Of a stretch of 60,598 nt of DNA, positions 4,755 through 57,340 are shown piece after piece (position 1 is the first letter of the stretch; every line of letters starts with the position of its first letter). The notes below the pieces were generated by a model. It had not been told where the DNA came from and did not search any database. It saw nothing but the letters and a program-made list of their open reading frames with translations. The stretch spans positions 16,625-77,222 of the forward strand of contig JAVHYA010000014.1 in the NCBI GenBank assembly GCA_031119395.1, given 5' to 3'. The stretch comes from Pseudomonadota bacterium (GTDB lineage Bacteria; Pseudomonadota; Gammaproteobacteria; Burkholderiales; Burkholderiaceae_C). A program made the position numbers and the translations under genes.

Positions 4755-4819
4755 AATTGCAAGGGAAAAGTGGCTGCAGCGCCCGCCCGGCGGGCGCGAG
4801 CAGCTATGAATTCGATAGC
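4755..4819 (-). repeat. Family A two-hairpin interspersed repeat, copy A1
   Basis: Read on the minus strand this has the two-part structure shared by the family: a small hairpin GCTAT-CGAATTC-ATAGC, then a GC hairpin GCGCCCG-CC-GGGCGGGCGC, then a tail ending CTTTTCCCTTGCAA. It sits between the prmB stop (4834) and the ABC-F start (4686) and is transcribed in its own orientation if these two genes share a transcript. Confidence 0.8.
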
Positions 4820-4833
4820 GTTCCGGCGGGCCC

Positions 4834-5712
4834 TCAGGGCGGTGCCATGGCGGCCAGCGCCTCGCGCGTGACCAGCAGCACCTGCTCGTCGCCCGCGCTG
4901 GTCTCGAGCCAGACGACCTCGAGGGCGGGAAAGGCGGCCTCGAAATGCGCGCGCTCGTTGCCGATCTCCAGCACCAGCACGGCCTCGCTGCGCATGCGCG
5001 CCGGTGCGTCGGCAAGGAGGCGGCGCACGAAGTCCATGCCGTCCTCGCCGCCGGCCAGCGCGAGTTCGGGCTCGGCCCGGTACTCCGCCGGCAGCGCCGC
5101 CATGCTCTGCGCATTGACGTAGGGCGGGTTGCACAGGATGAGGTCGTAGGGGCCGGGCAGGGCGGCCAGGCCGTCGCTCTCGCGCAGGGTGATGCGTGCA
5201 TCGAGCGCATGACGCGCGATGTTGATGGCCGCGACTTCCAGCGCGGGCGGCGAGATGTCCGCGGCATCGACCCGCACCTCCGGCCACGCCATGGCGGCGA
5301 GCACGGCCAGGCTGCCGTTGCCGGTGCACAGGTCCAGCACCGCCTGGGTGCGCTCGCTCAACCATGGGTCGATGCTGCCGTCGGCGATCAGTTCGGCGAT
5401 GAAGCTGCGCGGCACGATGGCGCGCTCGTCCACGTAGAAGGACACGCCCTGCAGCCAGGCCTCCCGGGTGAGGTAGGCCGCGGGCTTGCGCGTCGCGATG
5501 CGTTCGCCGACCAGGGCCTCCACCTGCGCCTGCGCGCCGGCCGACACCTCGCGCTCGGCCACCGCATCCAGGTCGTCCAGCGGCAGCCGCAGCCGCCACA
5601 GCACCAGCCAGGCCGCCTCGTCGAAGCCGTTGGTCGTGCCGTGGCCGTAGCCCACGCCGGCCGCATCGAGGCGGGCGGCGGATTGTTCGATCAGGTTCAG
5701 GACGGTGGGCAT
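4834..5712 (-). CDS. prmB: 50S ribosomal protein L3 N5-glutamine methyltransferase
   Basis: This 292-residue SAM-dependent methyltransferase modifies a glutamine of ribosomal protein L3. It carries the SAM-binding motif DLCTGNGSLAV (residues 127-137) and the glutamine-methylating signature NPPY (195-198), followed by VNAQSMAALPAEYRAEPELA. The N-terminal helical domain ending LTREAWLQGVSFYVDERAIV at about 81-100, and the phrase PRSFIAEL, separate PrmB from the release-factor enzyme PrmC. Length fits the family (about 300 residues). It lies downstream of dapE on the same strand, separated by a family B palindrome that fills the whole junction. Confidence 0.93.
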   Translation of the reverse strand: MPTVLNLIEQSAARLDAAGVGYGHGTTNGFDEAAWLVLWRLRLPLDDLDAVAEREVSAGAQAQVEALVGERIATRKPAAYLTREAWLQGVSFYVDERAIVPRSFIAELIADGSIDPWLSERTQAVLDLCTGNGSLAVLAAMAWPEVRVDAADISPPALEVAAINIARHALDARITLRESDGLAALPGPYDLILCNPPYVNAQSMAALPAEYRAEPELALAGGEDGMDFVRRLLADAPARMRSEAVLVLEIGNERAHFEAAFPALEVVWLETSAGDEQVLLVTREALAAMAPP

Positions 5713-5722
5713 GGAAGGAAAC

Positions 5723-5902
5723 CGGACAGCCGTACGCGAAGGACGCGAAGGTTTCGCGAAGGACGCGAAAAAGTATCTGAAAAGGAAGAAAGCGGGGTGG
5801 CGAAGCAGGGTGCGCCCGGATCATTCGCCGGGCGCTGGCCCATCAAGAAAATATCGCGCCTTTCGCGAAACCTTCGCGCCCTTCGCGTAAGGATGCCCGC
5901 AT
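5723..5902 (+). repeat. Family B long imperfect palindrome, copy B1
   Basis: The left arm holds repeated ACGCGAAGG-like units after CCGTACGCGAAGG. The right arm holds their reverse complements (CCTTCGCG units) and ends GGATGCCCGCATTC. The arms could pair into one long hairpin. The loop is longer than in copies B2 and B3 and holds its own hairpin, GCGCCCGG-ATCATTCG-CCGGGCGC. The element fills the junction between dapE and prmB and ends at the base before the dapE stop codon. Confidence 0.85.
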
Positions 5903-7147
5903 TCAGCGCCCCAACGTCCCCTCCAGCGCCTCGATCGTCCGCCGGTAGATGTTCTTGAGCGTGTCGATCGCGTCCACGTCGATGTGCTCGTCGATCTTGT
6001 GGATGCTGGCGTTCACCGGCCCGAGCTCGACCACCTGCTCGCACACCTTGGCGATGAAGCGCGCATCGCTGGTGCCGCCGCTCGTGGACAGCTCGGTCTC
6101 GATGCCGGTTTCGCTGCGGATGGCGCCCTGCACGGCAGCCACCAGGGCGCCGGGCTGGGTCAGGAAAGGCAGGCCGCCGATGGTCCACGTCAGCTCGTGG
6201 TCCACGCCGTGGCGGTCCAGCACCTCCTTCACGCGCGCCTGCAGCGAGTCGGGCGTGGACTCGGTCGAGAAGCGGAAGTTGAAGTCGATCACCGCGCTGC
6301 CGGGGATGACGTTGCTCGCGCCCGTGCCCGCGTGGAAATTGCTGATCTGCCAGCTGGTGGGCTGGAAGTACCGGTTGCCGGCGTCCCAGCCGCCGGCGGT
6401 GTTGATGGCCACCAGCTCGGCCAGTGCGGGCGCGACGGCATGCACCGGGTTCCTGGCCAGGTGCGGGTAGGCGATGTGGCCCTGCACGCCGTGCACCGTG
6501 AGCTTGCCGCTCATCGTGCCGCGGCGGCCGTTCTTGATCATGTCGCCGCAGCGCTCGACCGAGGTCGGCTCGCCGACGATGCACCAGTCGAGCACCTCGC
6601 CGCGTGCGGCCAGCGCGTTGCACACGACGACCGTGCCGTCGACGCCGGGGCCTTCCTCGTCGCTGGTGAGCAGCAGGGCCAGGGTGATGGCCGGGTCGGG
6701 GTTCGCGGCCAGGAACTCCTCGATCGCCACCACGAAAGCCGCCAGCGAGGTCTTCATGTCGCAGGCGCCGCGGCCGTACAGGCGCCCGTCGCGGTGCGTC
6801 GGCGTGAAGGGGTGGCTGGTCCACTGGTCCAGCGGGCCGGTGGGCACCACGTCCGTGTGGCCGGCAAAGACCAGCGTGCGGGTCTTCGGCGCGGCATTTG
6901 CTATTTTTTCGATAGCGCCTTGCGCAAGCGGGGCGGGCGCTGCAGCCCGATTCGACTCGTAAGCTGCAGGGCGCCGCACGGCCCAGAGGTTGGTCACGCG
7001 GAAGCTCTCCGGCCCGCTCTCGATGGTTTCGAGCGCGAAGCCGAGCTTCGCGAGGCGCTCGCCGAGGATCCGCTGGCAGCCGGCGTCCTCCGGCGTGACC
7101 GAGGGGCGGGAAATGAGTTGTTCGGCGAGCTGGAGCGTGCGGGACAT
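5903..7147 (-). CDS. dapE: Succinyl-diaminopimelate desuccinylase
   Basis: This 414-residue M20-family zinc hydrolase removes succinate from N-succinyl-LL-diaminopimelate in the lysine and cell-wall precursor pathway. Visible signatures are [12 protein letters not shown] (metal ligand H97 and D99), RGACDMKTS with the bridging aspartate, [11 protein letters not shown] with the catalytic glutamate, and [12 protein letters not shown]. The start at 7147 gives [19 protein letters not shown], matching the family; the frame extends further upstream into the pilU end. It is about 30 residues longer than usual. The extra segment, about residues 59-88, is encoded by a family A repeat and lies just before the metal-binding strand. 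It follows pilU by 26 bases. Confidence 0.95.
6897..6962 (+). repeat. Family A repeat A2 inside dapE
   Basis: The plus strand reads GCTAT-TTTTTCG-ATAGC, then a GC-rich stem region GCGCAAGCGGGGCGGGCGC, then TGCAGCCCGATTCGACT. This is the family A plan with a degenerate second stem. It lies antisense within dapE and is translated in frame as an alanine-rich segment (residues about 60-88). Confidence 0.8.
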
Positions 7148-7173
7148 GCTGGGCGTGGTGGCTGGATCGGCGC

Positions 7174-8325: not shown

Positions 8326-8386
8326 CGTGCCCTCCAGGTGGTTGGTGCGTTCAAGCAGGAAGGCCGCTCTGCAGCGACCTTCTCGT

Positions 8387-9220
<834 letters not shown>

Positions 9221-9251
9221 GGCAAACGGGTCGGAGGAACAAGGAGGAGCT

Positions 9252-10463: not shown

Positions 10464-10471
10464 GGGGGCGA

Positions 10472-10477
10472 ATTATC
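10472..10477 (-). promoter_or_regulatory. Candidate -10 element of the dapC-dapD-pilU-dapE run
   Basis: The minus strand reads GATAAT here, eight bases before the dapC ATG. A transcript starting the usual six to eight bases downstream would begin at or next to the ATG. No clear -35 box was identified, so this rests on the hexamer and its spacing only. Confidence 0.4.
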
Positions 10478-14839: not shown

Positions 14840-15202
14840 GAGGGCGAGCGGGGCTGGCGGGGGCGGGGACGGCGAGACGAAGCGCGGATTGTCCATGAAG
14901 CGCCCGGCGGGCGTGGGCAGGCGCTCTGCGCCGATCGGGCCGCCCGGCCATGCGGCGCGGCGCGGGCGCGCTTGCCCGCAGGGCATCGTAACGTCTGTTA
15001 CGAGTTTGCCGCCGATGCCCGCCGGGCGTGCGCTGCGGGCCGATCGCACTCGGGTGCCGGCCTGCCTGCCGTGCCTTGGCTGCGGGCCAGGCGGCCCGGC
15101 CGCGTCGCACGGGCGCCACGCAGCCGGCCCGGATGTCCGGCCAAAGATAATCGCCGGCTCGCTTGCGGCCACGCCTGCCGCCCCCACCTGATCCCTTCCC
15201 GA
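14840..15202. other. argA-hrpA divergent intergenic region
   Basis: This 363-base region has no supported gene. It must hold the promoters of both neighbours. A GATAAT hexamer at 15146-15151 on the plus strand is a candidate -10 for hrpA, 51 bases before its ATG. A variant family A repeat lies at 14988-15053, and a weaker partial resemblance to the same GC stem lies at about 14898-14942. Confidence 0.5.
14988..15053 (+). repeat. Family A repeat, variant copy A3
   Basis: The first hairpin reads GTAAC-GTCT-GTTAC instead of the usual GCTAT/ATAGC, followed by a GC stem around GCCCGCCGGGCG, then GCGCTGCGGGCCGATCGCACT. Copy A5 has the same overall plan and tail but yet another first stem, so the two form a variant subgroup. 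Confidence 0.6.
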
Positions 15203-18200
15203 ATGCCCGCGCTCGACATCCAGTTCCCCGAATCGCTTCCCGTCAGCGCCAAGCGCGACGACATCGCGGCCGCCATCGCGGCCCACCAGGTGGTGATCGT
15301 GTGCGGCGAGACCGGCTCGGGCAAGACCACCCAACTGCCGAAGATCGCCCTGGCGCTGGGCCGCGGCAAGCTCAATGCGCCACCCGGCCGCGGCCGCCTC
15401 ATCGGCCACACCCAGCCGCGGCGCATCGCCGCCAGCTCGGTGGCCAAGCGCATCGCCGAGGAGCTGAAGACGCCGCTGGGCGACGTGGTGGGCTACAAGG
15501 TCCGCTTCCAGGACCGCCTGTCGCGGGACGCGTCGGTGAAGCTGATGACCGACGGCATCCTGCTGGCCGAGACGCAGACCGACCCGCTGCTCAAGGCCTA
15601 CGACACGCTGATCATCGACGAGGCGCACGAACGCTCGCTGAACATCGACTTCCTGCTGGGCTACCTGAAGGAAATCCTGCCGCGGCGGCCGGACCTGAAG
15701 CTGATCGTGACTTCGGCGACCATCGATGCGGACCGCTTCGCCGAGCACTTCGCGTCGGCGAAGGGCAAGGCACCGGTCATCTACGTCTCGGGCCGCACCT
15801 TCCCGGTGGAGATGCGCTGGCGGCCCTTCGAGGAGTCGCGCGACTTCGACCTCAACGACGCGATCGCCGACGGCGTGGACGAACTGTGGGCCGGCGGCGT
15901 GGGCGGCGACATCCTGGTCTTCCTGCCGGGCGAGCGGGAGATCCGCGAGGCGGCCGATCACCTGCGCAAGCACCTGGCGCACAGCCCGGTGCTGCGCAAC
16001 GCGGAGGTGCTGCCCTTGTTCGCCCGGCTGAGCCAGGCCGAGCAGGACCGCATCTTCGACGGCCACACGGGCCGGCGCATCGTCCTGGCGACCAACGTGG
16101 CCGAGACCTCGCTGACGGTGCCGGGCATCCGCTACGTGATCGACGCCGGCACGGCACGGGTGAAGCGCTACGCCTTCCGCAGCAAGGTCGAGCAGCTGAT
16201 GGTCGAGCCCGTCAGCCAGGCGGCGGCCAACCAGCGCGCGGGCCGCTGCGGCCGGGTGGCCAACGGCATCTGCATCCGCCTCTACGACGAGAAGGACTTC
16301 AACAGCCGGCCGCGCTTCACCGACCCGGAAATCCTTCGCTCGTCGCTGGCGGGCGTGATCCTGCGCATGAAGTCGCTGCACCTGGGCGACGTGGGGCGCT
16401 TTCCCTTCCTGGAGGCGCCGTCGGGGCGGGCGATCGCCGACGGCTACCAGCTGCTCAACGAGCTGGGCGCGGTGGACGAGGCCAACGAGCTCACGCCCAT
16501 CGGCGCCGAACTGGCCAAGCTGCCGCTCGACCCGCGCGTGGGCCGCATGATCCTGGAGGCGCGCAGCCGCGGCGCGCTGCAGGAAGTGCTGGTGATCGCC
16601 GCCGCGATGAGCGTGCAGGACGTGCGCGACCGCCCGCTCGAGGCCCAGCAGCAGGCCGACCAGGCCCATGCCAAGTTCGACGACGAGCGAAGCGAGTTCA
16701 GCGGCTACCTGACGCTGTGGAAGTGGCTGCACGATGCGCGCGGCGGCGCGCCCGTGGCGCAGACGCGGCGCGAGATGCAGGCGCGGGTGCAGGGACCGAA
16801 GAAGGCGAGTGCGGCGGTGCTGCCCGTGGCGCAACGGATGGCCGCGGCCGCGCCGGCGCCGGCACCCGACCCGGCCACGCCCACCCACAAGCTCAGCAAC
16901 CGCCAGTACGAACAGCTGCTGCGCCAGAACTTCATCAGCGTGCGGCGCGTGCGCGAGTGGCGCGACATCCATTCGCAGCTGCTCACGGTCGTCACCGAGC
17001 ACAAGTGGAAGCTGAACACCGCGCCTGCCGGGTACGAGGCGGTGCACAAGTCCATGCTCGCCGGCCTGCTGGGCAACATCGGCTGGAAGATGGACGAGGA
17101 GGCGGGCTCGTCCTCCGGCGAATACCTGGGCGCACGCGGCATCAAGTTCCACCGCCATCCCGGCGCCCACCTGCGCAAGCGGCCGGGCCGCTGGATCGTG
17201 TGCGCCGAGCTGGTCGAGACCACGCGCCTCTTCGGCCGCGGCATCGCCAACATCGAGCCGCAGTGGATCGAGGAGGTCGCGGGCCACCTGCTCAAGAAGC
17301 AGCTGCTCGACCCCCACTGGGAGAAGAAGGACGCGCGCGTGGCCGCCTTCGAGCGCGCCACGCTGTACGGCCTGGTGGTCTACAGCGGCCGGCGCGTGGA
17401 CTTCGCCAAGGTCGACCTGCCGGCGGCGCGCGAGATCTTCCTGCGCGAGGCGCTGGTGGCGGGCGACTGGGAGACGAAGCTGCCCTTCCTCACCGCCAAC
17501 CGCAAGCTGGTGCGCGAGGTCGAAGGCCTGGAGCACAAGTCGCGCCGGCAGGACGTGCTGGTGGACGACGCGCTGATCTACGCCTTCTACGACGCACACG
17601 TGCCGGCCGAGCTCGCCAACGGCCAGGCCTTCGAGCAGTGGTACCGCGACGCCGCGAAGGCCCAGCCGCGCCTGCTGTTCCTCACGCGCGAGGAGCTGAT
17701 GCGCCATCAGGCGGCCGGCATCACGACGCAGGCCTTCCCGCCCACCGTCAAGCTGGGCGGCGTGGACTGCGCGGCCAGCTACCTGCACGAGCCCGGCGAT
17801 CCGAAGGACGGGCTGACGGTGACGGTGCCGCTGTTCGTGCTCAACCAGGTGAGCGAGGAGCGCTGCGAATGGCTGGTGCCCGGCATGCTCAAGGACAAGA
17901 TCCAGGCGCTGCTCAAGAGCCTGCCGCAGCGTCCGCGTTCGCGCTTCGTGCCGCTGCCGGAGTCGGCCGCGCGGCTGAACGACGCGCTCTCGGCGCCGGA
18001 AGCCTTCGGCCGCGGCGCGCTGACGGACGCGCTGCTCAAGCGGGTGCGCGACGAGACCAGCCTGGACGTCAAGCGGGCCGACTTCAAGCTCGACATGCTG
18101 GCGCCGCACCTGTTCATGAACCTGCGCGTGGTCGACGAGCATGGCCGGCAGCTGGGCATGGGGCGCAACCTCGGCGCGCTGAAGGGCGAGCTGGGCGCCC

Positions 18201-19219
18201 AGGCGCGCGGCGCCTTCCAGGCGCTGGCAGGCCTGCGGGCGCGGCCGTCCGCGAGTTCAGAGGAAAAACTGCCTGAAACGCCCGTGGGACGGGCGCAGCC
18301 AGCTATCAAAAACGTAGCAGACCAGGCGACTGCACCGGCGACCACCCAGCGCCACACGGCCTGGACCTTCGGCGAACTGCCCGAGTTGATGGAGGTGCGG
18401 CGCGGCCCGCAGACGCTGATCGGCTTCCCGGCGCTGATCGACGGCGGCGACGCCGTGACCATCGAGGTGTTCGACGAGCCGGAGGTTGCCGCGGCGAAGC
18501 ACCGGGCCGGCCTGCGCCGGCTGGTGGCGCTGCAGCTCAAGGACGCCCTGAAGTACCTGGAGAAGAACATTCCCGACCTGCAGAAGATGGCGGTGGCCTA
18601 CCTGCAGGTCGGCAAGGCGCCCGACGGGTCGGGCGGCGGCACGCTGGAAGAACTGCGCGCGCAGATCATCGACGTCGCGCTGGACCGCGCCTTCCTGCAG
18701 GACCCGCTGCCCGCGGACGCGGCCGCCTTCCAGCGCCGCGTGGACGAGGGGCGAGGGCGCCTGACGCTGATCGCCAACGAGGTGGCGCGGCTGGCAGGCA
18801 CGATCCTGGCGGAGCATGCGGCGGCGGCGCGCAAGATCAAGGACACCAAGGTCCATCCCGAGGCGGTGAAGGACGCGGCCGAGCAATTGCAGCGGCTCGT
18901 CGGCAAGCGCTTCCTGGCCGACACGCCGTGGGCGCAGTTGCAGCACTTCGCGCGCTACCTGAAGGCCATCGTGCTGCGGCTGGACAAGCTGCGCGCCGAT
19001 CCGGCGCGCGACGCCTCGCGCCTGGCCGAGCTCAAGCCGCAGGAGCAGCGCTACTGGCGCCTCGTGGCCGAGCGCAAGGGCGCGACCGACGAGCGCATGC
19101 TGGAGTTCCGCTGGCTGCTGGAAGAGCTGCGCGTGAGCTTCTTCGCGCAGGAACTGCGCACGCCGCAGCCGGTCAGCCTCAAGCGCCTGGACAAGGCCTG
19201 GCTGCAGATCGCGCACTGA
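15203..19219 (+). CDS. hrpA: ATP-dependent RNA helicase HrpA
   Basis: This 1338-residue DEAH-box helicase matches HrpA in length and order of domains. Walker A GETGSGKTTQ is at residues 35-44, the DEAH box at about 139-142 (IIDEAHERSLNIDF), motif III TSATIDADRF, motif V ATNVAETSLTVPG, and motif VI QRAGRCGR. A helicase-associated and OB region follows, then the long HrpA-specific C-terminus. HrpA is known in E. coli for work on stalled ribosomes and mRNA processing. The frame is open far upstream, but the ATG at 15203 starts MPALDIQFPESLPVSAK as in relatives. Residues about 1019-1040 are encoded by a family A repeat. Confidence 0.94.
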   Translation: MPALDIQFPESLPVSAKRDDIAAAIAAHQVVIVCGETGSGKTTQLPKIALALGRGKLNAPPGRGRLIGHTQPRRIAASSVAKRIAEELKTPLGDVVGYKVRFQDRLSRDASVKLMTDGILLAETQTDPLLKAYDTLIIDEAHERSLNIDFLLGYLKEILPRRPDLKLIVTSATIDADRFAEHFASAKGKAPVIYVSGRTFPVEMRWRPFEESRDFDLNDAIADGVDELWAGGVGGDILVFLPGEREIREAADHLRKHLAHSPVLRNAEVLPLFARLSQAEQDRIFDGHTGRRIVLATNVAETSLTVPGIRYVIDAGTARVKRYAFRSKVEQLMVEPVSQAAANQRAGRCGRVANGICIRLYDEKDFNSRPRFTDPEILRSSLAGVILRMKSLHLGDVGRFPFLEAPSGRAIADGYQLLNELGAVDEANELTPIGAELAKLPLDPRVGRMILEARSRGALQEVLVIAAAMSVQDVRDRPLEAQQQADQAHAKFDDERSEFSGYLTLWKWLHDARGGAPVAQTRREMQARVQGPKKASAAVLPVAQRMAAAAPAPAPDPATPTHKLSNRQYEQLLRQNFISVRRVREWRDIHSQLLTVVTEHKWKLNTAPAGYEAVHKSMLAGLLGNIGWKMDEEAGSSSGEYLGARGIKFHRHPGAHLRKRPGRWIVCAELVETTRLFGRGIANIEPQWIEEVAGHLLKKQLLDPHWEKKDARVAAFERATLYGLVVYSGRRVDFAKVDLPAAREIFLREALVAGDWETKLPFLTANRKLVREVEGLEHKSRRQDVLVDDALIYAFYDAHVPAELANGQAFEQWYRDAAKAQPRLLFLTREELMRHQAAGITTQAFPPTVKLGGVDCAASYLHEPGDPKDGLTVTVPLFVLNQVSEERCEWLVPGMLKDKIQALLKSLPQRPRSRFVPLPESAARLNDALSAPEAFGRGALTDALLKRVRDETSLDVKRADFKLDMLAPHLFMNLRVVDEHGRQLGMGRNLGALKGELGAQARGAFQALAGLRARPSASSEEKLPETPVGRAQPAIKNVADQATAPATTQRHTAWTFGELPELMEVRRGPQTLIGFPALIDGGDAVTIEVFDEPEVAAAKHRAGLRRLVALQLKDALKYLEKNIPDLQKMAVAYLQVGKAPDGSGGGTLEELRAQIIDVALDRAFLQDPLPADAAAFQRRVDEGRGRLTLIANEVARLAGTILAEHAAAARKIKDTKVHPEAVKDAAEQLQRLVGKRFLADTPWAQLQHFARYLKAIVLRLDKLRADPARDASRLAELKPQEQRYWRLVAERKGATDERMLEFRWLLEELRVSFFAQELRTPQPVSLKRLDKAWLQIAH
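18258..18321 (-). repeat. Family A repeat A4 inside hrpA
   Basis: On the minus strand the element reads GCTA-CGTTTTTGA-TAGC, then GCGCCCG-TCCCA-CGGGCG, then TTTCAGGCAGTTTTTCCTC. It is antisense to hrpA and is translated in frame as a short linker (SSEEKLPETPVGRAQPAIKN) between the helicase core and the following domain. Confidence 0.85.
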
Positions 19220-39331: not shown

Positions 39332-39467
39332 ATGCGGACCACCGTACGCGAAGGGCGCAAAGGTTTCGCGAAGGACGCGAAGGGGTCCATGAATGACTTG
39401 GATGTTCTTCGCGACCTTCGCGTGACCTTGGTTCTCTTTTCGCGTACGGATGTCCGCTCCCGTATTC
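39332..39467 (+). repeat. Family B long imperfect palindrome, copy B2
   Basis: The left end reads GCGGACCACCGTACGCGAAGG and the right end reads CGCGTACGGATGTCCGC, inverted copies of each other apart from few mismatches. Between them lie ACGCGAAGG-like units on the left and CTTCGCG units on the right. It starts immediately after the permease stop codon and ends 24 bases before the flavin oxidoreductase start, so it would be transcribed inside the operon. Confidence 0.88.
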
Positions 39468-41479: not shown

Positions 41480-41546
41480 GTCACGTTCGTGACGAATTCG
41501 GCGGCAGCGCCCGGCGGGCGGGCGCTGCAGGCCGATTGCACTTCGC
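41480..41546 (+). repeat. Family A repeat, variant copy A5
   Basis: The first hairpin is GTCACG-TT-CGTGAC, then GCGCCCG-GCGGG-CGGGCGC with the trailing TGCAGGCCGATTGCACT. It lies four bases after the phnX stop codon and before the DUF454 stop, in the convergent junction, where it could act as a terminator-like structure even though no T tract follows. Confidence 0.75.
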
Positions 41547-41560
41547 AGAAACGGCGCCTT

Positions 41561-41982: not shown

Positions 41983-42825
41983 TCAGCCGTCGTCCCGCAC
42001 GCGCACGAAGCGCGCAAAGCGCGGCACGCCGGCCGCGCTGGTGCCGTTGAAGCGGTAGGTCACGGTGCTGCCGATGGGCGGCGGGTCGGCGCGCTGCGCG
42101 TCGGTGAAGCCGCCGCCGAGGCGGAAGGTCACGCCCTCGGGCGTGCGCACCAGCAGGGCGCCCATGCGGCCCGCATGGCGGCCCTGGCCGGGCAGGTGGG
42201 CGACGACCCGCGCCTCGGCATCGTCATGCGGCTTGACCTTGAGCAGGTCGCCACTGCGTTCGCCGCGGTAGAGCGAAGCGCCCCGGTGCAGCATCAGGCC
42301 TTCCCCGCCCAGGCGGATCGTCTTGTCGAGCAGCGCCATGAGCTCGGCATGCGTGGTGGCGCGCGCCTGCGCCACGGGCACCACCCAGGGCGCCTCGGTG
42401 ATGGGCAGCAGCTTGCGCAGCGCTGCGAGGCGGGCGTCGAAGTCGCCAGGCTGCGCGGGCAGGTCGAAGACCATGAAGCGGATCTCACGCCAGGCCTTGT
42501 CGTCCGGCGTGCGGTTGCGCACCGTGGACACGGCCTGCTCGAAGCGCCCCCGGCCGGCCCACAGTTCGCCATCCATCGGCGTGGCCGGCAGCGGCGCGGT
42601 GAACCATGCCGGCGCGGCGATCGGCTCGCCGCCGCGCGTCCACAGGCGCTTGCCGTCCCAGTAGCCGCGCAGGCCGTCGTACTTCTCGCTGACCCACCAG
42701 CCGGCCAGCGGCATGCCGGCGCGGTAGCGCTCGGCCAGCATGAGGGCCGGGGCCGCCCAGCCCGCGGCGGGCCATGCCAGCAGGGCGGCGGGAGCGATCA
42801 GCAGGGCACGGCGCGCGATCGTCAT
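41983..42825 (-). CDS. Periplasmic ATP-dependent DNA ligase (LigE type)
   Basis: A 280-residue minimal ATP-dependent DNA ligase with a signal peptide (MTIARRALLIAPAALLAWPA to about residue 24). The adenylated lysine is K48 in EKYDGLRGYWDG, motif III-like FMVFDLPA near 117, motif IV GGEGLMLHRG near 173, and motif V LLKVKP near 194. An OB-fold domain follows (about residues 200-280). This matches LigE, known from several proteobacteria as an exported nick-sealing ligase, perhaps acting on extracellular or incoming DNA. It lies downstream of fabI; the whole junction is a family A repeat that abuts the ATG, so no ordinary ribosome binding site is seen. Confidence 0.88.
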   Translation of the reverse strand: MTIARRALLIAPAALLAWPAAGWAAPALMLAERYRAGMPLAGWWVSEKYDGLRGYWDGKRLWTRGGEPIAAPAWFTAPLPATPMDGELWAGRGRFEQAVSTVRNRTPDDKAWREIRFMVFDLPAQPGDFDARLAALRKLLPITEAPWVVPVAQARATTHAELMALLDKTIRLGGEGLMLHRGASLYRGERSGDLLKVKPHDDAEARVVAHLPGQGRHAGRMGALLVRTPEGVTFRLGGGFTDAQRADPPPIGSTVTYRFNGTSAAGVPRFARFVRVRDDG

Positions 42826-42890
42826 GCTATGGAATCGATAGCTGGTGGCGCCCGCTGGACGGGCGCTGTGGGCACTTTCGGCTTGGAAGA
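42826..42890 (+). repeat. Family A repeat A6 filling the fabI-ligase junction
   Basis: The plus strand reads GCTAT-GGAATCG-ATAGC, then GCGCCCG-CTGGA-CGGGCGC, then TGTGGGCACTTTCGGCTTGG. The first base is next to the ligase ATG (first base of the start codon at 42825), and the element runs almost to the fabI stop codon at 42898-42900. It is the clearest copy of the consensus. Confidence 0.9.
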
Positions 42891-42897: not shown

Positions 42898-43689
42898 TCA
42901 GGCGGCCGGCTCGTCGATGCCGCCCACGACGTTGCTGAAGCCGCCGTCGACATAGGTGATCTCGGCCGTCACGCCTGCCGCCAGGTCCGACAGCAGGAAG
43001 GCGGCGACGTTGCCCACGTCCTCGATCGTGATGTTGCGGCGGATGGGCGACACCTCGGCCACCGTCGAGAGGATCTTGCCGAAGCCCTTGATGCCGCTGG
43101 CGGCCAGCGTCTTCACCGGGCCGGCGCTGATGCCGTTGACGCGCATGCCGCGCGGGCCGAGCGAGCCGGCCAGGTAGCGCACCGAGGCCTCGAGGCTGGC
43201 CTTGGCCAGGCCCATGGTGTTGTAGTTGGGCAGCGCGCGCACGGCGCCCAGGTAGGTCAGCGTGAGCAGGGCCGACTTGTCGTTGAGGTAGGGCAGGGCC
43301 GCCTTGGCCATGGCCGGGAAGCTGTAGGCGCTGATGTCGTGCGCGATCTTGAAGCCTTCGCGCGAGAGGCCGTCGAGGAAGTCGCCCGCGATCGCCTCGC
43401 GCGGCGCGAAGCCGATGCTGTGCACGAAGCCGTCGAACTTCGGCCAGGTCTGCGACAGGTCGGCGAAGAGCTTGTCGATCTGCGCATCGTCGGCCACGTC
43501 GCAATCGAACACCAGCTTGGAGCCGAACTCGGCGGCGAACTCCGTGATGCGGTCCTTGAAGCGCTCCCCCACGTAGCTGAAGGCCAGCTCGGCGCCTTGC
43601 TGGTGGCAGGCCTTGGCGATGCCGTAGGCGATGGAGCGGTTGCTCAGCACACCGGTGATCAGGAGCTTTTTGCCGGCGAGAAAACCCAT
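42898..43689 (-). CDS. fabI: Enoyl-[acyl-carrier-protein] reductase (NADH) FabI
   Basis: A 263-residue FabI, which reduces enoyl-ACP in the last step of each fatty acid elongation cycle. It starts [20 protein letters not shown], with the non-classical cofactor loop of FabI, has [11 protein letters not shown] near residue 90, and the catalytic Tyr-x6-Lys region [12 protein letters not shown] near 155. The ending [11 protein letters not shown] is a little different from typical but consistent. AAGGACAT upstream of the ATG at 43689 is a strong ribosome binding site; the frame is open further upstream and was rejected there. It is divergent from yejA, 50 bases apart. Confidence 0.95.
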
Positions 43690-45626: not shown

Positions 45627-45633
45627 CCGCACC

Positions 45634-46668: not shown

Positions 46669-47725
46669 GCCTGTCCATACGCTGCCCGCGGCTTCGCCGG
46701 CCCGCCTGTCGCCCGGACGCCGCGCCTGGCGGCGCTTCCGCCGCAACCGGCTGGGCTTCTACAGCCTGGTGCTCTTCGTCGTCATGGTGGTGCTGAGCCT
46801 CTTCGCCGAGGTGTTGTCCACCGACAAGCCGCTGGTCGTGCGCTACGAGGGCCGGACCTACTTCCCGGTCTTCAAGGACTATTCCGAGAAGGCCTTCGGC
46901 GGCGACTTCGAGACGCCGGCCGACTACCTGGACCCCTTCATCCGCCAGCGCATCACCGAAGGCGCCAACTGGGCCGTCTATGCGCCCAACCCGTACGGCC
47001 CGCGCACGCTGAACTACTTCGCCAGCCAGCCCAATCCGGCGGCGCCCTCGCGCGAGAACCTCTTCGGCACCGACGACCGGGGCCGCGACCTGCTGGCGCA
47101 GCTCATCTACGGCTTCCGGGTGAGCGTGCTGTTCGCCCTGGCCCTCACGGCCATCGGCGTGGTGCTGGGCGTGATCACCGGCGCGATCCAAGGCTACTTC
47201 GGCGGCAAGACGGACCTCGCCTTCCAGCGTTTCATCGAGATCTGGGGATCGATGCCCGAGCTGTACCTGCTGATCATCTTCAGCGCCATCTTCGCGCCCA
47301 GCGTGGCGCTGCTGCTGGTGCTGCTGTCGCTCTTCGGCTGGATGGGCCTGTCGGACTACGTGCGCGCCGAGTTCCTGCGCAACCGGCAGATGGACTACGT
47401 GCGCGCCGCCCGCGCGCTGGGCGTGGGCAACCTGCAGATCATGTGGCGCCACATCCTGCCCAACAGCATGGTGCCGGTCGTGACGTTCCTGCCCTTTCGC
47501 ATGAGCGCGGCCATCCTGGCCCTGACCTCGCTCGACTTCCTGGGCCTGGGCGTGCCGCCCGGCACGCCGTCGCTGGGCGAATTGCTCAACCAGGGCAAGG
47601 CCAACATCGACGCCTGGTGGATCTCCATGTCCACCTTCGGCGTGCTGGTCGTCACGCTGATGCTGCTGACCTTCATGGGCGACGCGCTGCGCGATGCCAT
47701 GGACCCGAGAAAGGCGGACCGATGA
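46661..47725 (+). CDS. yejE: Peptide/microcin C-type ABC transporter permease YejE
   Basis: A 354-residue permease partner of YejB. After a cytoplasmic N-terminus (LSPGRRAWRRFRRNRLGFYS) and the first membrane segment comes the YejE-specific periplasmic region (residues 45-140) with YFPVFKDYSEKAFGGDFETP; the family motif FGTDDRGRDLLAQLIYGFR marks the start of the transmembrane core. The EAA loop YVRAARALGVGNLQIMWRHI is near residue 250. The start is a TTG at 46661, overlapping the yejB end; no ATG or GTG fits the conserved N-terminus. It ends overlapping the yejF ATG (ATGA). Confidence 0.93.
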   Translation: MTEPVHTLPAASPARLSPGRRAWRRFRRNRLGFYSLVLFVVMVVLSLFAEVLSTDKPLVVRYEGRTYFPVFKDYSEKAFGGDFETPADYLDPFIRQRITEGANWAVYAPNPYGPRTLNYFASQPNPAAPSRENLFGTDDRGRDLLAQLIYGFRVSVLFALALTAIGVVLGVITGAIQGYFGGKTDLAFQRFIEIWGSMPELYLLIIFSAIFAPSVALLLVLLSLFGWMGLSDYVRAEFLRNRQMDYVRAARALGVGNLQIMWRHILPNSMVPVVTFLPFRMSAAILALTSLDFLGLGVPPGTPSLGELLNQGKANIDAWWISMSTFGVLVVTLMLLTFMGDALRDAMDPRKADR

Positions 47726-49341
47726 CCCCGCTCCTGCAGGTCCGCAACCTGCGCATCGCCTTCGACGGCAAGGACGTGGTGCACGGCCTCGACCTCGACA
47801 TCGCGGCCGGCGAGAAGCTTGCGCTGGTGGGCGAATCCGGGTCGGGCAAGACGATCACGGCATTGAGCCTGCTGCGGCTGGTGCCCAACGCCGAGCTGTC
47901 GGGCGTTGCAAAGCTTTTCGGCCCGGAAGGCCCACCAGGCGGGCGTGACCTGCTATCGATTTCGGAGCGCGAGCTGCGCGGCGTGCGCGGCCGGGAGATC
48001 GCGATGATCTTCCAGGAGCCGATGACGGCCCTCAACCCGCTGTACCCGGTCGGCGACCAGATCGCCGAGGTGCTCGAACTGCACGAGGGCCTGGGCAGGC
48101 GCGAGGCCCAGGCCGCGGCCGTGCAGCTGCTGGCCGACACCGGCGTGCCCGAGCCGGCCCGGCGGGCGCGGTCCTTCCCGCATCAGCTCTCGGGTGGGCA
48201 ACGGCAGCGCGCCATGATCGCCATGGCCCTGGCCTGCAAGCCGCGCCTGCTGCTGGCCGACGAGCCCACCACCGCCCTGGACGTGACGCTGCGGGTGCAG
48301 ATCCTCGATCTGCTCGACAAGCTGCAGCAGCAGCACGGCATGGCGGTGCTGCTCATCACCCACGACCTCAACCTGGTGCGCCGCTTCGCCGACCGCGTGG
48401 CGGTGATGGAGCAGGGGCGCCTGGTGGAGGAGGGGGCCGTTGCCACGGTCTTCGACGCGCCCCGGCACCCCTACACCCGCAAGCTGATCGACAGCCGGCC
48501 GGCACGCGACGTCGTCGCCGTGCCGGACGCGGACGCCGGACGCCCGCCGGTGCTGACCGCCCGTGGCCTGCGCGTGAGCTATCCCGTGCCGCGCCCCGGC
48601 ATCCGCGGCTGGTTCGGCCGCGACGCCTTCGTGGCGGTGCAGGGTGCCGACCTGGCCATCGCGCGCGGCGAGACGCTCGGCGTGGTCGGCGAATCGGGCT
48701 CGGGCAAGTCCACCCTGGCCCTGGCCGCGCTGGGCCTGCTGCCGGCGCAGGGTGAACTGCGCATCGACGGGCGCGGCTGGACGCGCCGCACCGCCACCGA
48801 CCGGCCGTTGCGGCGGGTGGTGCAGGTGGTGTTCCAGGACCCCTTCTCGTCGCTCTCCCCGCGCCTGACGGTGGAGGAGATCGTCGGGGAGGGCCTGGCC
48901 GTGCACGGCGAAGCGGCCCAGGCCCCCCAGCGGCGCCAGCGCGTCCTGGAGGCGCTGGCCGACGTCGGGCTCACCGAGGCGCAGTTCCCGTCGCTGCTGC
49001 AGCGCTACCCCCACGAGTTCTCGGGCGGGCAGCGGCAGCGCCTGGCCATCGCCCGGGCGCTGATCGTCGATCCGGCGCTGCTGGTGCTCGACGAGCCCAC
49101 CAGCGCGCTCGACGTGACGATCCAGAAGCAGGTGCTGGGCCTCCTGCAGCGCCTGCAGCGCGAGCGCGGCCTGAGCTACCTGCTGATCACGCACGACGTG
49201 GAAGTCATCCGCGCCATGGCGCACCGGGTGCTGGTGATGAAGGACGGCGCCGTCGTGGAGCAGGGGGGCGTCGACCAGGTGCTCGATGCGCCGCAGCACC
49301 CCTACACCCGCCAGCTGGTCGCCGCGGCCTTGGCCGATTAG
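47722..49341 (+). CDS. yejF: Peptide/microcin C-type ABC transporter ATP-binding protein YejF
   Basis: A 539-residue double ABC ATPase that powers YejB-YejE. The first half has [15 protein letters not shown] near residue 38, [15 protein letters not shown] near 160 and [13 protein letters not shown] near 180; the second half repeats this with [30 protein letters not shown] and [14 protein letters not shown]. Both halves carry the oligopeptide-type signature HPYTR(K/Q)L near their ends. Residues about 62-82 ([20 protein letters not shown]) are encoded by a family A repeat copy and lengthen a surface loop by a few residues. ATG at 47722; the frame is open upstream. Confidence 0.93.
47905..47963 (-). 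repeat. Family A repeat A7 inside yejF
   Basis: On the minus strand it reads AATCGATAGC, then CACGCCCGCCTGGTGGGC, then CTTCCGGGCCGAAAAGCTTTGCAA. The start of the first hairpin is degraded and the second stem is imperfect, so it is the least certain in-gene copy. It is antisense to yejF and translated in frame. Confidence 0.6.
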
Positions 49342-52918: not shown

Positions 52919-52942
52919 TCGCCATGGAGGCACGAACCAGAT

Positions 52943-55840
52943 ATGTCCAGCACCACCGTTGCAGAGTTCGCTCAAGAACTCAAGAAGACACCCGAAACGC
53001 TGCTTGACCAGCTGCGCAGCGCGGGCGTGACCAAATCGGCTGCGTCCGATGCCCTGACCGAGGGCGACAAGCAGGCCCTGCTCGGCCATCTCAAGGCGAG
53101 CCACGGCACGGCTGCGCCCGAGCGCAAGAAGATCACGCTGACCAAGAAATCCACCAGCGAGATCAAGCAGGCGGACGCGATGGGGCGCGCGCGCACGATC
53201 CAGGTGGAAGTGCGCAAGAAGCGCACCTTCATCCAGCGCGACGATGCGCCCGCCGAGGCGCCCGCACCGGCCCCCGCGCCCGCGGTGCCCCAGATCGACG
53301 AGGCCGAACTGGCACGTCGCGAGGAAGAGGCACGCCGCAACGCCGAGCTGCTGCGCCGCCAGGAAGAGGAACTCGCCGCCAAGCGCAAGGAGCGCGAGGA
53401 GGCCGAGGCACGCGAGCGCGAAGTCGCCGAGCGCGAGGAGCAGGCCGACAAGGCGCGTGAAGCGCAGGTCGAGAGGGCCCGTGCCGAAGCCGCGATGCTG
53501 AACGCCGCCGCCGAGAAGGCCCGCAATACCTCGCCGGGTGCCGAGGCTGCTGCGGCTGCGGCCGCCGCCCAGGCCGCGGCAGACAAGGCTGCTGCCGAGA
53601 AGGCCGCCGCCGAGAAGGCCAAGGAAGAAGCCAAGGCGAAGGCTGCCGCCGAATCGAAGGCGCGCGCCGACGAAGAGGCGGCCCGGGCCAAGGACCTGGA
53701 CGAGCGCCGCCGCAAGGCGCTGGCCGAGGCCGAGGCCATCCGCGAGATGATGAACGCGCCCAAGCGCGTGCTCGTGGCCAAGAAGGAAGAGCCCAAGCCC
53801 GCCGAGGTGAAGCCTGCCGTCAAGGGCACGCTGCACAAGCCGGCCGCCGGCGCACGCCCCGCGGCGGGCGCGCCCGCGGCGCCGGGTTCGGGCAAGGAGA
53901 TCAAGTCCGCCAAGACCTCTTCCGCCTGGGCCGGCGATCCGGCCAAGAAGAAGGAAATCAAGACCCGCGGCGACGCCAGCGGCGGCGTGGGCCGTGGCAA
54001 CTGGCGCGGGGGCCCGCGCGGCCGCCGCGGCAACGACCGCGACCGCGACGATTCGCACCAGCAGGCCGCACCGGTCGAGCAGCGCGTGATCGAGGTGCAC
54101 GTGCCGGAAACCATCACGGTGTCCGAACTCGCGCACAAGATGTCGATCAAGGCCTCCGAGGTGATCAAGCAGCTGATGAAGCTGGGCCAGATGGCGACCA
54201 TCAACCAGTCGCTGGACCAGGACACGGCCATGATCCTGGTGGAGGAACTGGGCCACACCGCCGTCGTGGCGGCGCTGGACGACCCGGAAGCCTTCACCGA
54301 GGAAGAGGTGCAACAGGCACAGGCCGAGGCCCTGCCGCGTGCGCCGGTCGTGACCGTCATGGGCCACGTCGACCACGGCAAGACCTCGCTGCTGGACTAC
54401 ATCCGCCGCGCCAAGGTGGCGGCGGGCGAAGCGGGCGGCATCACGCAGCACATCGGCGCCTACCACGTCGAGACGCCGCGCGGCATGATCACCTTCCTCG
54501 ACACCCCGGGCCACGAGGCGTTCACCGCCATGCGTGCCCGCGGTGCCCAGGCCACCGACATCGTCATCCTCGTGGTGGCGGCCGACGACGGCGTGATGCC
54601 GCAGACCAAGGAAGCCGTCAAGCACGCCAAGGCGGCCGGCGTTCCGATCGTGGTCGCGGTCAACAAGATCGACAAGCCCGACGCCAACCCCGAGCGCGTG
54701 AAGAGCGAGCTGGTGGCCGAGGAGGTCGTGCCCGAGGAGTTCGGTGGCGATTCGCCCTTCGTCGAGGTCTCGGCCAAGACGGGCAAGGGCATCGACGACC
54801 TGCTCGAGCAGGTGCTGCTGCAGGCCGAAGTGCTGGAACTGAAGGCGCCGGTCGAAGCCGCCGCCAAGGGCCTGGTCATCGAAGCGCAGCTGGACAAGGG
54901 CCGCGGCCCCGTGGCCACGGTGCTGGTGCAGTCGGGCACGCTCAAGGTGGGCGACGTGGTGCTGGCCGGTTCGACCTATGGCCGCGTGCGCGCCATGATC
55001 GACGAGGACGGCAAGACCACCAAGTCGGCCGGCCCCTCGATCCCGGTCGAGATCCAGGGCCTGACCGAAGTGCCGCAGGCGGGCGACGAGTTCATGGTGA
55101 TGGCCGACGAGCGCCGTGCGCGCGAGATCGCCACCTACCGTGCCGGCAAGTTCCGCAACACCAAGCTGGCCAAGCAGCAGGCCGCCAAGCTCCAGAACAT
55201 GTTCTCGGACATGACGGCCGGCGAGGTCAAGACCCTGCCGATCATCATCAAGGCGGACGTCCAAGGCTCGCAGGAAGCGCTGTCGCAGTCGCTGCTCAAG
55301 CTCTCGACCGACGAGGTCAAGGTGCAGGTGGTGTATGCGGGCGTGGGCGGCATCAGCGAATCCGACGTGAACCTGGCGATCGCCGCCAAGGGCATCGTGA
55401 TCGGCTTCAACGTGCGTGCCGATGCCGGTGCGCGCAAGCTGGCCGAGGGCAACGACGTCGAGATCAAGTACTACAGCATCATCTACGACGCCGTGGACGA
55501 GCTGAAGACCGCGATGGCCGGCATGCTGGCGCCCGAGAAGCGCGAAGAGATCATCGGCCACGCCGAGATCCGCACGGTGTTCGTGGCGACGAAGATCGGC
55601 ACGATTGCCGGTTCGTACGTGCTCGACGGCGTGGTCACGCGCAACGCGCACTTCCGCCTGCTGCGCGACAACATCGTCGTCTACACGGGCGAGATCGAGT
55701 CGGTCAAGCGCATGAAGGATGACGTGAAGGAAGTCCGCGAGGGCTTCGAGTGCGGTATCAAGCTGCGCAACTACAACGACATCAAGGAAGGCGACCAGCT
55801 CGAGATCTTCGAGATCAAGGAGATCGCGCGGACGCTGTAA
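52943..55840 (+). CDS. infB: Translation initiation factor IF-2
   Basis: A 965-residue IF-2, which places initiator tRNA on the 30S subunit. The N-terminal domain (residues 1-60) starts [20 protein letters not shown], followed by a long charged, alanine-rich helical linker (residues 100-290) and a basic glycine/arginine patch (about 345-370). The GTPase core has [12 protein letters not shown] near residue 472, [15 protein letters not shown] near 518 and [13 protein letters not shown] near 572, then domains II-IV. Start and length fit a betaproteobacterial IF-2. It follows nusA by 24 bases. Confidence 0.97.
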
Positions 55841-55842
55841 AA

Positions 55843-55980
55843 CGGATACGGACAGCCGTACGCGAAGGACGCGAAGATCACGCGAAGTACGCGAAAGAGA
55901 AAGTCATCTTCTTTCGAGTTCTTCGCGGTCTTCGCGAGACCTTCGCGTATTTCGCGTTCGGTTCCCGCTCCCGCATTTCG
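55843..55980 (+). repeat. Family B long imperfect palindrome, copy B3
   Basis: The left end reads CGGACAGCCGTACGCGAAGG followed by ACGCGAAG units; the right arm carries CTTCGCG units and ends GGTTCCCGCTCCCGCATTTC. It fills the infB-rbfA junction, starting two bases after the infB stop codon and ending two bases before the rbfA start. rbfA therefore lacks a normal purine-rich ribosome binding site outside the element. Confidence 0.85.
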
Positions 55981-55982
55981 CC

Positions 55983-56363
55983 ATGCCCAAGCGCAAGTCC
56001 ACTGCCCCCAACCGCGGCTTCAAGGTCGCCGATCAGATCCAGCGCGATCTGACGGAGCTGATCGCGCGCGAACTGAAGGATCCGCGGGTGGGCATGGTCA
56101 CGCTGCAGGCCGTGGAGGTCACGCCCGACTACGCGCACGCCAAGGTGTTCTTCAGCGTGCTCGTGGGCGATCCGATGGAAACCCAGGAGGCCTTGAACCA
56201 GGCCGCCGGCTTCCTGCGCAACGGCCTGTTCAAGCGCCTGCACATCCACACCGTGCCCACGCTGCACTTCGTGTTCGACCGCACCACCGAGCGTGCGGCC
56301 GACATGAACGCCTTGATCGCCAAGGCGGTTTCCTCGCGTTCAAAAGACGACGACACCCCATGA
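55983..56363 (+). CDS. rbfA: Ribosome-binding factor A
   Basis: A 126-residue single KH-domain protein that helps mature the 16S rRNA 5' end. [20 protein letters not shown] at residue 13 and [20 protein letters not shown] near 35 are characteristic, as is [20 protein letters not shown] at the end. The last codon overlaps the truB ATG (ATGA), so the two are translationally coupled. The start at 55983 gives [12 protein letters not shown] and lies two bases beyond the B3 palindrome. Confidence 0.95.
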
Positions 56364-57340
56364 GCCCGCCATCCCGTGTCAGGGTGCAGCGGCGCCCTGT
56401 GCATGGGGTGTTGCTGCTCGACAAGCCGCTGGGTCTGTCCAGCAACCAGGCCTTGCAGAAGGCCAAGTGGTTGCTGCGCGCCGAAAAGGCCGGCCACACC
56501 GGCACGCTCGATCCGCTCGCGACCGGCGTGCTGCCGCTGTGCTTCGGTGCGGCGACCAAGTTCAGCCAGCTGCACCTCGACGCCGACAAGACCTATCGCG
56601 CCATCGCGCGCCTCGGCGTGCGCACCGCCACGGGCGACGCGGAAGGCCAGGTGATCGCCGAACGCCCGGTCGGGGTGACGGCGGAGGACCTGGCGCGCGT
56701 GCAGGCGCAATTCACCGGCCGCATCACGCAGGTGCCGCCGATGCACAGCGCGCTCAAGAAGGACGGCAAGGCGCTGTACGAGTACGCCCGCGAGGGCGTC
56801 GAGGTGGAGCGCGCGCCGCGCGAGGTCGAAATTTACGAGCTGAAAGTGGCTGCAGCGCCCGCCAGTCCTGTGCAGCCAGCTATCGAAATCGTAGCAACCG
56901 TCAGCAAGGGCACGTACATCCGCACGCTCGGCGAGGACATCGGCGAGGCGCTGGGCTGCGGCGCGCACCTCACGGCGCTGCGCCGCGTTGCCACCGGCGG
57001 CTTCGACGTCTCGCAGTGCGTCACGCTCGAAGCCCTCGAGGCGCTGGCGCCGGACGAGCGCCTGGCGCTGCTGCAGCCCGTCGAATGCCTGGTGGCCGGC
57101 CACACGCGCGTCACGCTCGGCGCCGAGGATGCGGGGCGTTTTCTCTCCGGCGTGCGCCGCCGCGGCGCCTGGCCCGATGCGCACGCGGTGGCCGTGTTCG
57201 GCGAGTCGCCGGCGGCCTTCCTGGGCACGGCCCACGTCAAGGCCGGTGAACTGATCCCGGGGCGCTTGCTGAGCCCCCTCGAAATCCAGCAAACCCTTCT
57301 TTCGAATCCAGCGCCTCGCGAAGAGGCCCTCACACCATGA
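56360..57340 (+). CDS. truB: tRNA pseudouridine(55) synthase TruB
   Basis: A 326-residue TruB, which makes pseudouridine 55 in the T loop of tRNAs. The catalytic aspartate is D51 in [16 protein letters not shown]; other signatures are [19 protein letters not shown] and [20 protein letters not shown]. The strand before [20 protein letters not shown] (about residues 160-179, sequence [20 protein letters not shown]) is encoded by a family A repeat, which lengthens or replaces a loop in the middle of the catalytic domain. A PUA-like C-terminal domain is present. The stop overlaps the typA ATG (ATGA). Confidence 0.94.
56836..56897 (-). repeat. Family A repeat A8 inside truB
   Basis: On the minus strand it reads GCTA-CGATTTCGA-TAGC, then the GC stem region GCACAGGACTGGCGGGCGC with one arm degraded, then TGCAGCCACTTTCAGCTCG. 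It is antisense to truB and in frame. Confidence 0.85.

What the first reader, a model, noticed from the sequence alone, without database searches (positions are those of the whole stretch)
4755..56897. Family A: a two-hairpin interspersed element with eight copies in 52 kb
Copies at 4755-4819, 6897-6962, 14988-15053, 18258-18321, 41480-41546, 42826-42890, 47905-47963 and 56836-56897 share one plan. A small stem (GCTAT-N7-ATAGC or a variant) is followed by a GC stem (GCGCCCG/CGGGCGC) and a tail with AGGCC/CAGCC and then T-rich or GATT sequence. They occur in both orientations, both within and between genes. The density, about one per 7 kb, is high and suggests a mobilised palindrome comparable to REP elements, or a selected RNA or DNA structure. 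I recall similar repeats in other Comamonadaceae but know of no described mechanism.
Basis: partly seen in the sequence, partly recalled or inferred. Interest (0 to 1): 0.78.

Follow-up and report, generated by a model that had tools for sequence, protein, structure and literature searches.

The report
Hundreds of conserved 65-base chromosomal repeats
A sharply bounded 65-base DNA repeat occurs about once every 7 kb in this Comamonadaceae (probably Xenophilus) chromosome; it looks like a relative of the bacterial REP repeats, but its copies stay at the same places in sister species and mutations avoid its key positions, so it is probably kept for a use rather than being loose mobile junk.

Summary
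The repeat is real. Five of the eight listed copies are full-length members (59-78 bits), one (47905) is weak, and two (14988, 41480) belong to a sister variant with another 5' stem. The unit is 65 nt, sharply bounded. In 392 kb of unselected own-genome DNA there are 57 matches against 0 in reversed DNA, about 145 per Mb. It occurs in many Comamonadaceae genera; one query copy found one weak plasmid hit and no phage hit. Sequence is conserved more than structure: base pairs hardly covary and the 7-bp GC stem is whole in 34 of 152 copies. Between sister species 36 of 38 and 26 of 27 copies sit at the same place, and substitutions avoid consensus columns (0.085 against 0.191; 4-fold sites 0.183). 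In one sister species, G007, the same copies have decayed without that pattern. Neighbours under 1 kb are nearly absent (1 observed, 15 expected). Best reading: a REP-like, (A/G)TAG-tagged family, spread in the past by the REP-associated transposase beside a gltB-like gene, now fixed and under selection. The transposase link is correlative; the phylogeny-controlled test was inconclusive.

The parts
4757..4821 (-). Full copy, intergenic between a methyltransferase gene (PrmB-like by name recalled; 4834-5712 -) and an ABC-F type ATPase gene (2659-4686 -)
   Evidence: R1 78.5 bits; present in G013, G012, G009, G014, decayed in G007; Pfam domains
6898..6962 (+). Full copy inside an M20 peptidase (DapE-like) gene (5903-7147 -), in frame; a net gain of about 66 nt against G003 by hand count
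   Evidence: R1 63 bits
14988..15055 (+). Sister-variant copy (5' stem GTAACG/CGTTAC), intergenic
   Evidence: R1 27.2 bits for 15006-15055; pattern
18256..18320 (-). Full copy inside a DEAH helicase gene (HrpA-like, DUF3418; 15203-19219 +), in frame
   Evidence: R1 68.6 bits
41480..41547 (+). Sister-variant copy (5' stem GTCACG/CGTGAC), intergenic between convergent genes
   Evidence: R1 34.5 bits for 41487-41547; shared with G013, G012, G009, G014
42824..42888 (+). Full copy between a DNA-ligase-like gene (41983-42825 -, start codon at its edge) and an SDR gene (42898-43689 -)
   Evidence: R1 71.8 bits; shared with G013, G012, G009, G014; G001, G004, G005 have 45-49 nt less between alignment anchors, G003 25 and G002 8 less
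47906..47970 (-). Weak or degenerate copy inside an oligopeptide-type ABC ATPase gene (47722-49341 +)
   Evidence: R1 32.7 bits; no fold
56833..56897 (-). Copy inside a truB-like gene (56408-57340 +), in frame; element-free orthologs in G007 and G001-G005 have the same length of ordinary coding sequence here
   Evidence: R1 59.1 bits; Pfam TruB_N

Best explanation
The repeat is a Comamonadaceae family of REP-like elements: a 65-nt unit T-T-GCTAY-N7-RTAG-C-TGC-NN-GCGC-N11-GCGC-T-GCAG-N4-ATTT-N6-GAAA (loose consensus). An (A/G)TAG tag lies just 5' of a GC hairpin, with an inverted copy of the tag upstream and a conserved AT-bearing tail downstream. Inferred: copies were scattered in the past as single units by the Y1 (HUH) REP-associated transposase, usually single-copy, that sits beside a gltB-like gene in the relatives looked at. 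Shown: in the clade with intact copies they are shared at the same places between species, and changes avoid the consensus columns. Inferred from this: a DNA-level function of the sequence, as a site bound by the transposase or by a nucleoid or topology protein, keeps them. Shown: copies closer than about 1 kb are avoided; why is not known.
For: Sharp borders at positions 1-2 and 65-66 in 152 unselected copies, next to no information in the flanks. 57 matches to 0 in reversed DNA. Tag RTAG in 137 of 152. Orthologous pairs G000/G009 (36, placed by best matrix score): 0.087 substitutions per site in the 30 most informative columns, 0.220 in the other 35; Spearman -0.62. Placed by flanks alone (20 of 38): 0.085 and 0.191, rho -0.49. 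4-fold sites 0.183. Intergenic pairs alone (16): 0.092 and 0.221, permutation p 5e-5. G007 (11 flank-placed pairs of 37): 0.394 and 0.364; without the truB site (10) 0.363 and 0.340. Spacing: 1 neighbour under 1 kb against 15 expected. Transposase residues (HUH, N59, Tyr) intact in 26 of 28 copy-rich genomes and 29 of 59 others; GCTA beside its 3' box in 16 of 28 copy-rich and 2 of 54 copy-poor genomes (2 of 5 between).
Against: With relatedness controlled on the transposase tree only 3 supported independent pairs remain: no evidence either way. G050 (58 copies, the cap) and G098 (17) are copy-rich with degenerate motifs; G070 has 31 copies and no transposase match, though it is only 74% complete. 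25 of 54 copy-poor genomes have intact motifs. The transposase of G007 has intact motifs although its copies decay. Copies next to the transposase in G000 and G013 match poorly (9.9 and 14.8 bits); the best, in G012, has 31.1. Other alignable intergenic DNA changed at 0.128 between G000 and G009, so whole copies (0.142-0.159) are not more conserved than that; only the consensus columns are. No clean recent insertion was seen (7 sites). Stems hardly covary. Dimers and clusters, typical of REPs, are absent.
Confidence: 0.55

Rival explanations
1. DNA uptake (self-recognition) sequence: the repeat marks own DNA for natural transformation; uptake bias plus recombination keeps the consensus.
For: Individually kept copies shared between species, no strand preference in tandem gaps (12 same, 14 opposite, counted by hand), a preferred reading frame inside genes (8 of 12), near absence from plasmids and phages with one query copy, decay in a single lineage (G007).
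Against: The unit is 65 nt with sharp borders and looks gained as a block against outgroups at 42824 and in the dapE-like gene. Passages read in PMC1939737 say that uptake sequences evolve by accumulating point mutations and are not palindromes. Density is far lower than that of known uptake sequences (recalled).
Confidence: 0.12
2. Fixed remnants of a selfish REP-like element with no host function; what looks like constraint is an alignment or ascertainment effect.
For: Origin as a bounded dispersed unit; decay in G007; whole copies are no more conserved than other alignable intergenic DNA (0.128).
Against: Choosing copies in G000 cannot make G009 substitutions avoid consensus columns, and the same choice shows no avoidance in G007. 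Placing by flanks alone gives the same result. In G007 152 of 294 A/T letters of the copies turned to G/C.
Confidence: 0.2
3. A transcribed RNA hairpin acting as terminator or mRNA stabiliser at gene ends.
For: 52 of 64 copies lie between genes or at gene ends; five of eight copies folded beat shuffled sequence as single-stranded DNA.
Against: No strand preference, presence also in divergent gaps and inside genes; the full 7-bp stem is whole in only 34 of 152; hardly any covariation; no Rfam match.
Confidence: 0.13

Closest known systems
GTAG-tagged REP elements with RAYT transposases (REPtrons)
   Same: Short high-copy chromosomal unit, TAG-ending tag 5' of a GC hairpin, mostly intergenic with some intragenic copies, a Y1 transposase with a related degenerate sequence at its 3' end
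   Different: 65 nt, not 20-40; tag mostly ATAG; upstream inverted tag and conserved 3' tail; no dimers or clusters; hardly any pair covariation; copies shared between species with column-specific constraint
REPIN (REP doublets)
   Same: Two short inverted parts around a spacer: GCTAY and RTAGC
   Different: Only one GC hairpin; the inverted part is 5 nt; copies stand alone, none within 400 nt of another among 146 on three contigs
Uptake signal sequences (Pasteurellaceae, Neisseriaceae)
   Same: Kept copies on both strands, some inside genes
   Different: Length, block-wise gain, hairpin character; competence not examined

Membership tests
GTAG REP / RAYT system | High copy number, dispersed, mainly extragenic | tested here: met
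   About 145 per Mb; 52 of 64 between genes or at gene ends
GTAG REP / RAYT system | GTAG tag at one end of a stem-loop | tested here: inconclusive
   RTAG just 5' of the hairpin in 137 of 152, but ATAG in 118 and GTAG in 19; [quoted passage not shown]
GTAG REP / RAYT system | Unit of 20-40 bp | tested here: not met
   65-66 nt conserved; the 20-40 bp from the start of the abstract of PMC3733652 (listing)
GTAG REP / RAYT system | Palindromic stem kept through compensatory change | tested here: not met
   Of 16 pairs only 5-17 clearly exceeds shuffling (145 against 142.3 of 152 paired); 7-bp stem whole in 34 of 152
GTAG REP / RAYT system | Cognate REP flanking the transposase gene | tested here: inconclusive
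   Degenerate copies 3' of the gene in G012, G013, G000 (31.1, 14.8, 9.9 bits) and one 5' of it in G040 (27.4 bits), of 43 loci searched; GCTA beside it in 16 of 28 copy-rich genomes
GTAG REP / RAYT system | Transposase of the REP-associated family with HUH and Tyr | tested here: inconclusive
   Best NCBIfam hit NF047646 at 70.7 bits, under the cut-off of 80; PF01797 over cut-off; residues present, their roles recalled
GTAG REP / RAYT system | Transposase binds and cleaves the element | not testable with these tools
   Needs biochemistry
REPIN / BIME | Close pairs or clusters in alternating orientation | tested here: not met
   No pair under 400 nt among 146 copies on three contigs; 1 neighbour distance under 1 kb among 160 copies
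DNA uptake sequence | Biased uptake by competent cells | not testable with these tools
   None

The most novel reading that the evidence does not exclude
Probability: 0.3. Interest if true: 0.82.

Novelty: new variant of a known kind. Interest (0 to 1): 0.6.

Why it matters
Whether REP-type repeats are selfish passengers or useful sites has long been open (recalled). Here several hundred copies at shared places can be compared across closely related species, with a sister species in which the same copies are drifting as a natural control. That gives a direct test of function and a way to look for the protein that reads them. The family spans many Comamonadaceae genera, and I found no description of it in the library searched.

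Tried and rejected
1. 'Replacement without insertion': at the truB copy the element-free orthologs have the same length, which suggested a length-preserving exchange. Other sites show net gain (about 59 nt between the genes at 42824 against G004, about 66 nt in the dapE-like gene against G003, both counted by hand), so I dropped this as a general rule. The truB flanks of G007 are also unusually divergent (73% and 80%), so that allele may be imported.

2. Transposase presence as the explanation: it matches in 87 of 90 family genomes whether copies are many or absent, so presence alone explains nothing; catalytic integrity correlates, but that test is not decisive on the tree.

3. Known RNA families: only one tRNA in the window at the gathering score, none up to E 1 in eight element loci.

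4. Literature: searches. Seen: search listings for all; passages only of PMC2817692, PMC3733652 (no occurrence of the Comamonadaceae names), PMC3116915, PMC2755013, PMC1939737; finds with no occurrence in PMC6006769 and PMC12306157. None of what I saw describes this repeat.

5. Overall regular spacing: not supported for G009 C11 (CV 0.99, random 0.98) or C32 (p 0.3); only C8 is more even than random (p 0.0015). The deficit is at short range.

6. Limits of counts: score at most 150, 131 and 58 candidates per genome, so high counts are lower bounds. R1 is trained on copies of this one genome and may miss diverged variants in other genera. Of the 62 matches I classified 56 (with the 8 window copies, 64); the six left out are four overlapping or other-strand readings, one with an insertion (L201) and one at 21.8 bits (L205).
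Full report
Observation. The eight listed stretches were read and aligned in one orientation. A covariance model (R1) was built from 32 copies, 5 of them from the window. In the window it gives five strong matches and three weak ones; the rest of its 51 matches are other-strand readings of these places or lie at 15 bits or less. Two of the weak ones (14988, 41480) are a sister variant with another 5' stem, found in 4 pattern hits in 452,751 nt of the own genome (one of them the same palindrome read on the other strand), 4 in 800 kb of G009 (one of which looks like chance) and none in 800 kb of G007.

The window lies in a 5.1-Mb draft genome, G000. Two relatives of the same genus (G009, G014) have contigs of exactly the lengths of Xenophilus contigs found by name (QAIB01000003.1 with 587,559 bases, NZ_QPIB01000007.1 with 586,080). 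The genus is therefore most likely Xenophilus; this is an inference from contig lengths.

Abundance. With one mismatch allowed, a pattern for the first half has 226 matches and the reversed pattern none. R1 scored 150 candidates in the genome and all passed with 56 bits or more, so the list is cut off by its cap. In 392,153 nt taken without regard to the repeat a position matrix at score 20 finds 57, and 0 in the reversed sequence: about 145 per Mb, some 700 in the genome by extrapolation. G009 has 89 in 800 kb and G007 11 in 800 kb.

Anatomy. 152 copies from these stretches and the window show information from position 1-2 to 65-66 and next to none outside. GCTAY, RTAGC, GCGC, GCGC, and the tail ATTT and GAAA carry most of it. 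Among the 152 the tag is ATAG or GTAG in 137; the first stem is fully paired in 86, the 7-bp second stem in 34 and its outer four pairs in 98. Of 16 pairs only one (5-17) clearly exceeds shuffling, 145 paired against 142.3; others lie within about 2.5 standard deviations on either side. Of eight copies folded as single DNA strands, five fold clearly better than shuffled sequence and three do not.

Place. Of 64 copies in 452 kb (56 of the 62 matches, plus the 8 of the window), 38 are intergenic, 14 overlap a predicted gene end and 12 lie inside a predicted gene; of the 12, 8 are in one orientation and frame. In gaps between genes of one direction 12 copies point with the genes and 14 against (counted by hand). 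The 160 copies at score 15 in G000 and G009 stretches have 1 neighbour distance under 1 kb and 10 under 2 kb, where random placement among gene junctions gives 15 and 33 (13 and 32 when weighted by gap length); none of 5000 placements of either kind was as low. Overall evenness is not general.

Distribution. Of 40 genomes (G000 and relatives) 15 have matches at E 0.001: 10 of 15 of the own genus but in very unequal numbers, five of 9 other genomes of the family (G016, G017, G018, G020, G023), and 0 of 16 from other families. In 90 family genomes 40 have matches (stricter filters, cap 58). The 119 matches found again in these stretches give the same unit length and tail outside the searched half. 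One query copy found one weak partial match in 72,556 plasmid records and none in 50,697 phage records.

History of single copies. All five strong window copies are found at the same place in G013, G012, G009 and G014; at truB, G007 and the outgroups G001-G005 have ordinary coding sequence. Of 41 own-genome sites with an orthologous place in the G009 stretches I left out L054 (a repeat of the window copy 4757) and the two variants at 41483 and 14990; of the other 38, 36 have a copy in G009, and C32:143791 and L056 do not. In the other direction 26 of 27 are present in G000; 61 of the 88 G009 copies examined had no orthologous place in the G000 stretches. In the 36 pairs the 30 most informative columns changed at 0.087 and the other 35 at 0.220. 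There the G009 window was placed by best matrix score, a possible bias towards consensus; placed by flanks alone (20 of 38 pairs, those of equal length) the rates are 0.085 and 0.191. The 16 intergenic pairs give 0.092 and 0.221, and the 7 placed by flanks 0.062 and 0.171. Eight pairs each with G013 and G012 go the same way (0.050/0.129 and 0.042/0.175). For comparison, 4-fold degenerate sites of window genes changed at 0.183 and other alignable intergenic DNA of the window at 0.128. Whole copies (0.142-0.159) are therefore not more conserved than alignable intergenic DNA; it is the consensus columns that are.

G007 is about as distant (4-fold sites 0.194, other intergenic 0.171), yet its orthologous copies have changed at 0.378 overall with no preference for columns (0.394 high, 0.364 low; the 11 of 37 pairs of equal length). 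Without the truB site, where G007 probably never had the copy or lost it by import, it is 0.363 and 0.340 in 10 pairs. The change is mostly A/T to G/C: 152 of 294 A/T letters, against 303 of 4296 in the flanks. Reading: constraint on the copies was lost in G007.

Insertion. At 42824 the own sequence is longer than outgroups between alignment anchors by 45-49 nt (G001, G004, G005), 25 (G003) and 8 (G002); at 4757 by 156 (G001, G005) and 83 (G002) but shorter by 2 and 4 against G004 and G003; at 41480 by 45 (G005) and shorter by 3 (G001). By hand from the same output, the gap between the genes at 42824 is about 59 nt longer than in G004 and the dapE-like gene about 66 nt longer than in G003. At 18256 and 47906 the extrapolated gap differs by 0 to 12 nt, and at truB by 0. 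No clean empty site between close species was found among seven inspected.

Transposase. G000 has one Y1 transposase gene; the next gene downstream starts with a class-II glutamine amidotransferase domain and is taken as gltB by recall. The best NCBIfam hit of the transposase is the REP-associated tyrosine transposase model at 70.7 bits, under the model's cut-off of 80. It matches in 87 of 90 family genomes, in some more than once. In 87 genomes for which I read the gene (74 of these 90 plus 13 more of the own genus; of the other 16, three had no match and 13 I did not fetch), HUH, N59 and Tyr are intact in 26 of 28 with 16 or more copies and in 29 of 59 with fewer (Fisher p 4e-5 over all, 0.006 with one genome per genus). 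One of the unread, G070, has 31 copies and no transposase match, in a 74% complete genome. The residue roles are recalled from IS200/IS605 enzymes. On the transposase tree only three supported independent pairs differ in copy richness, so relatedness may explain the trend. A GCTA motif within 24 nt before the TGTCCC box 3' of the gene is present in 16 of 28 copy-rich, 2 of 5 intermediate and 2 of 54 copy-poor genomes. In G012, G013 and G000 the stretch between stop codon and box is recognisable as a degenerate copy (31.1, 14.8 and 9.9 bits), and G040 has a copy just 5' of the gene (27.4 bits).

Reading. The origin as a REP-like unit handled by this transposase fits the borders, the tag, the flank and the phyletic trend, but each of the transposase arguments is correlative. 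That the copies are now under selection rests on the column-specific conservation with G007 as a control and, less directly, on the short-range spacing. What they do is not shown. REP features that fail here are unit length, stem covariation and dimers or clusters.

Noticed in passing
window 5718-5773, 5854-5899 (-), 39335-39381, 55849-55899: A second dispersed repeat, about 50 nt with CGCGAAGGACGCGAA, at 80-94% identity in G000 and G009 stretches; many copies stand as inverted pairs tens of bases apart, as REP doublets do.
   Followed up: partly
window 59162-59334: A 165-nt imperfect palindrome with ends GAAGGTGTGAAC/ATTCATTCGCACCTTC; many rows of the capped listing are copies of it in congeners, including genomes poor in family A (G001, G003, G004, G005), but it is the only one in the 452 kb of G000 looked at.
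   Followed up: partly
L101, L110, L407, L414 and others (transposase genes): The REP-associated transposase gene is kept as an open frame in several Comamonadaceae although HUH and Tyr residues are lost (e.g. G004, G002, G055, G056), which suggests a non-catalytic role.
   Followed up: partly
L090-L112, 3' of the transposase gene: A stretch like TGTCCCC ... AATTGGAATCTGACCCCAATTAA separates the transposase gene from the next gene in most relatives printed, also in ones without family A.
   Followed up: no
L384 1413-1477 (-): In G040 a family-A copy (27.4 bits) lies just 5' of the transposase gene.
   Followed up: no
L014 from 1501: A match at the start of a gene, where it reads as a signal-peptide-like N terminus; chance or capture.
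   Followed up: no
window 56583-57147 (truB-like gene): In G007 the truB flanks are only 73-80% identical to G000 against 92% over the surrounding 15 kb, as if that allele were imported.
   Followed up: no
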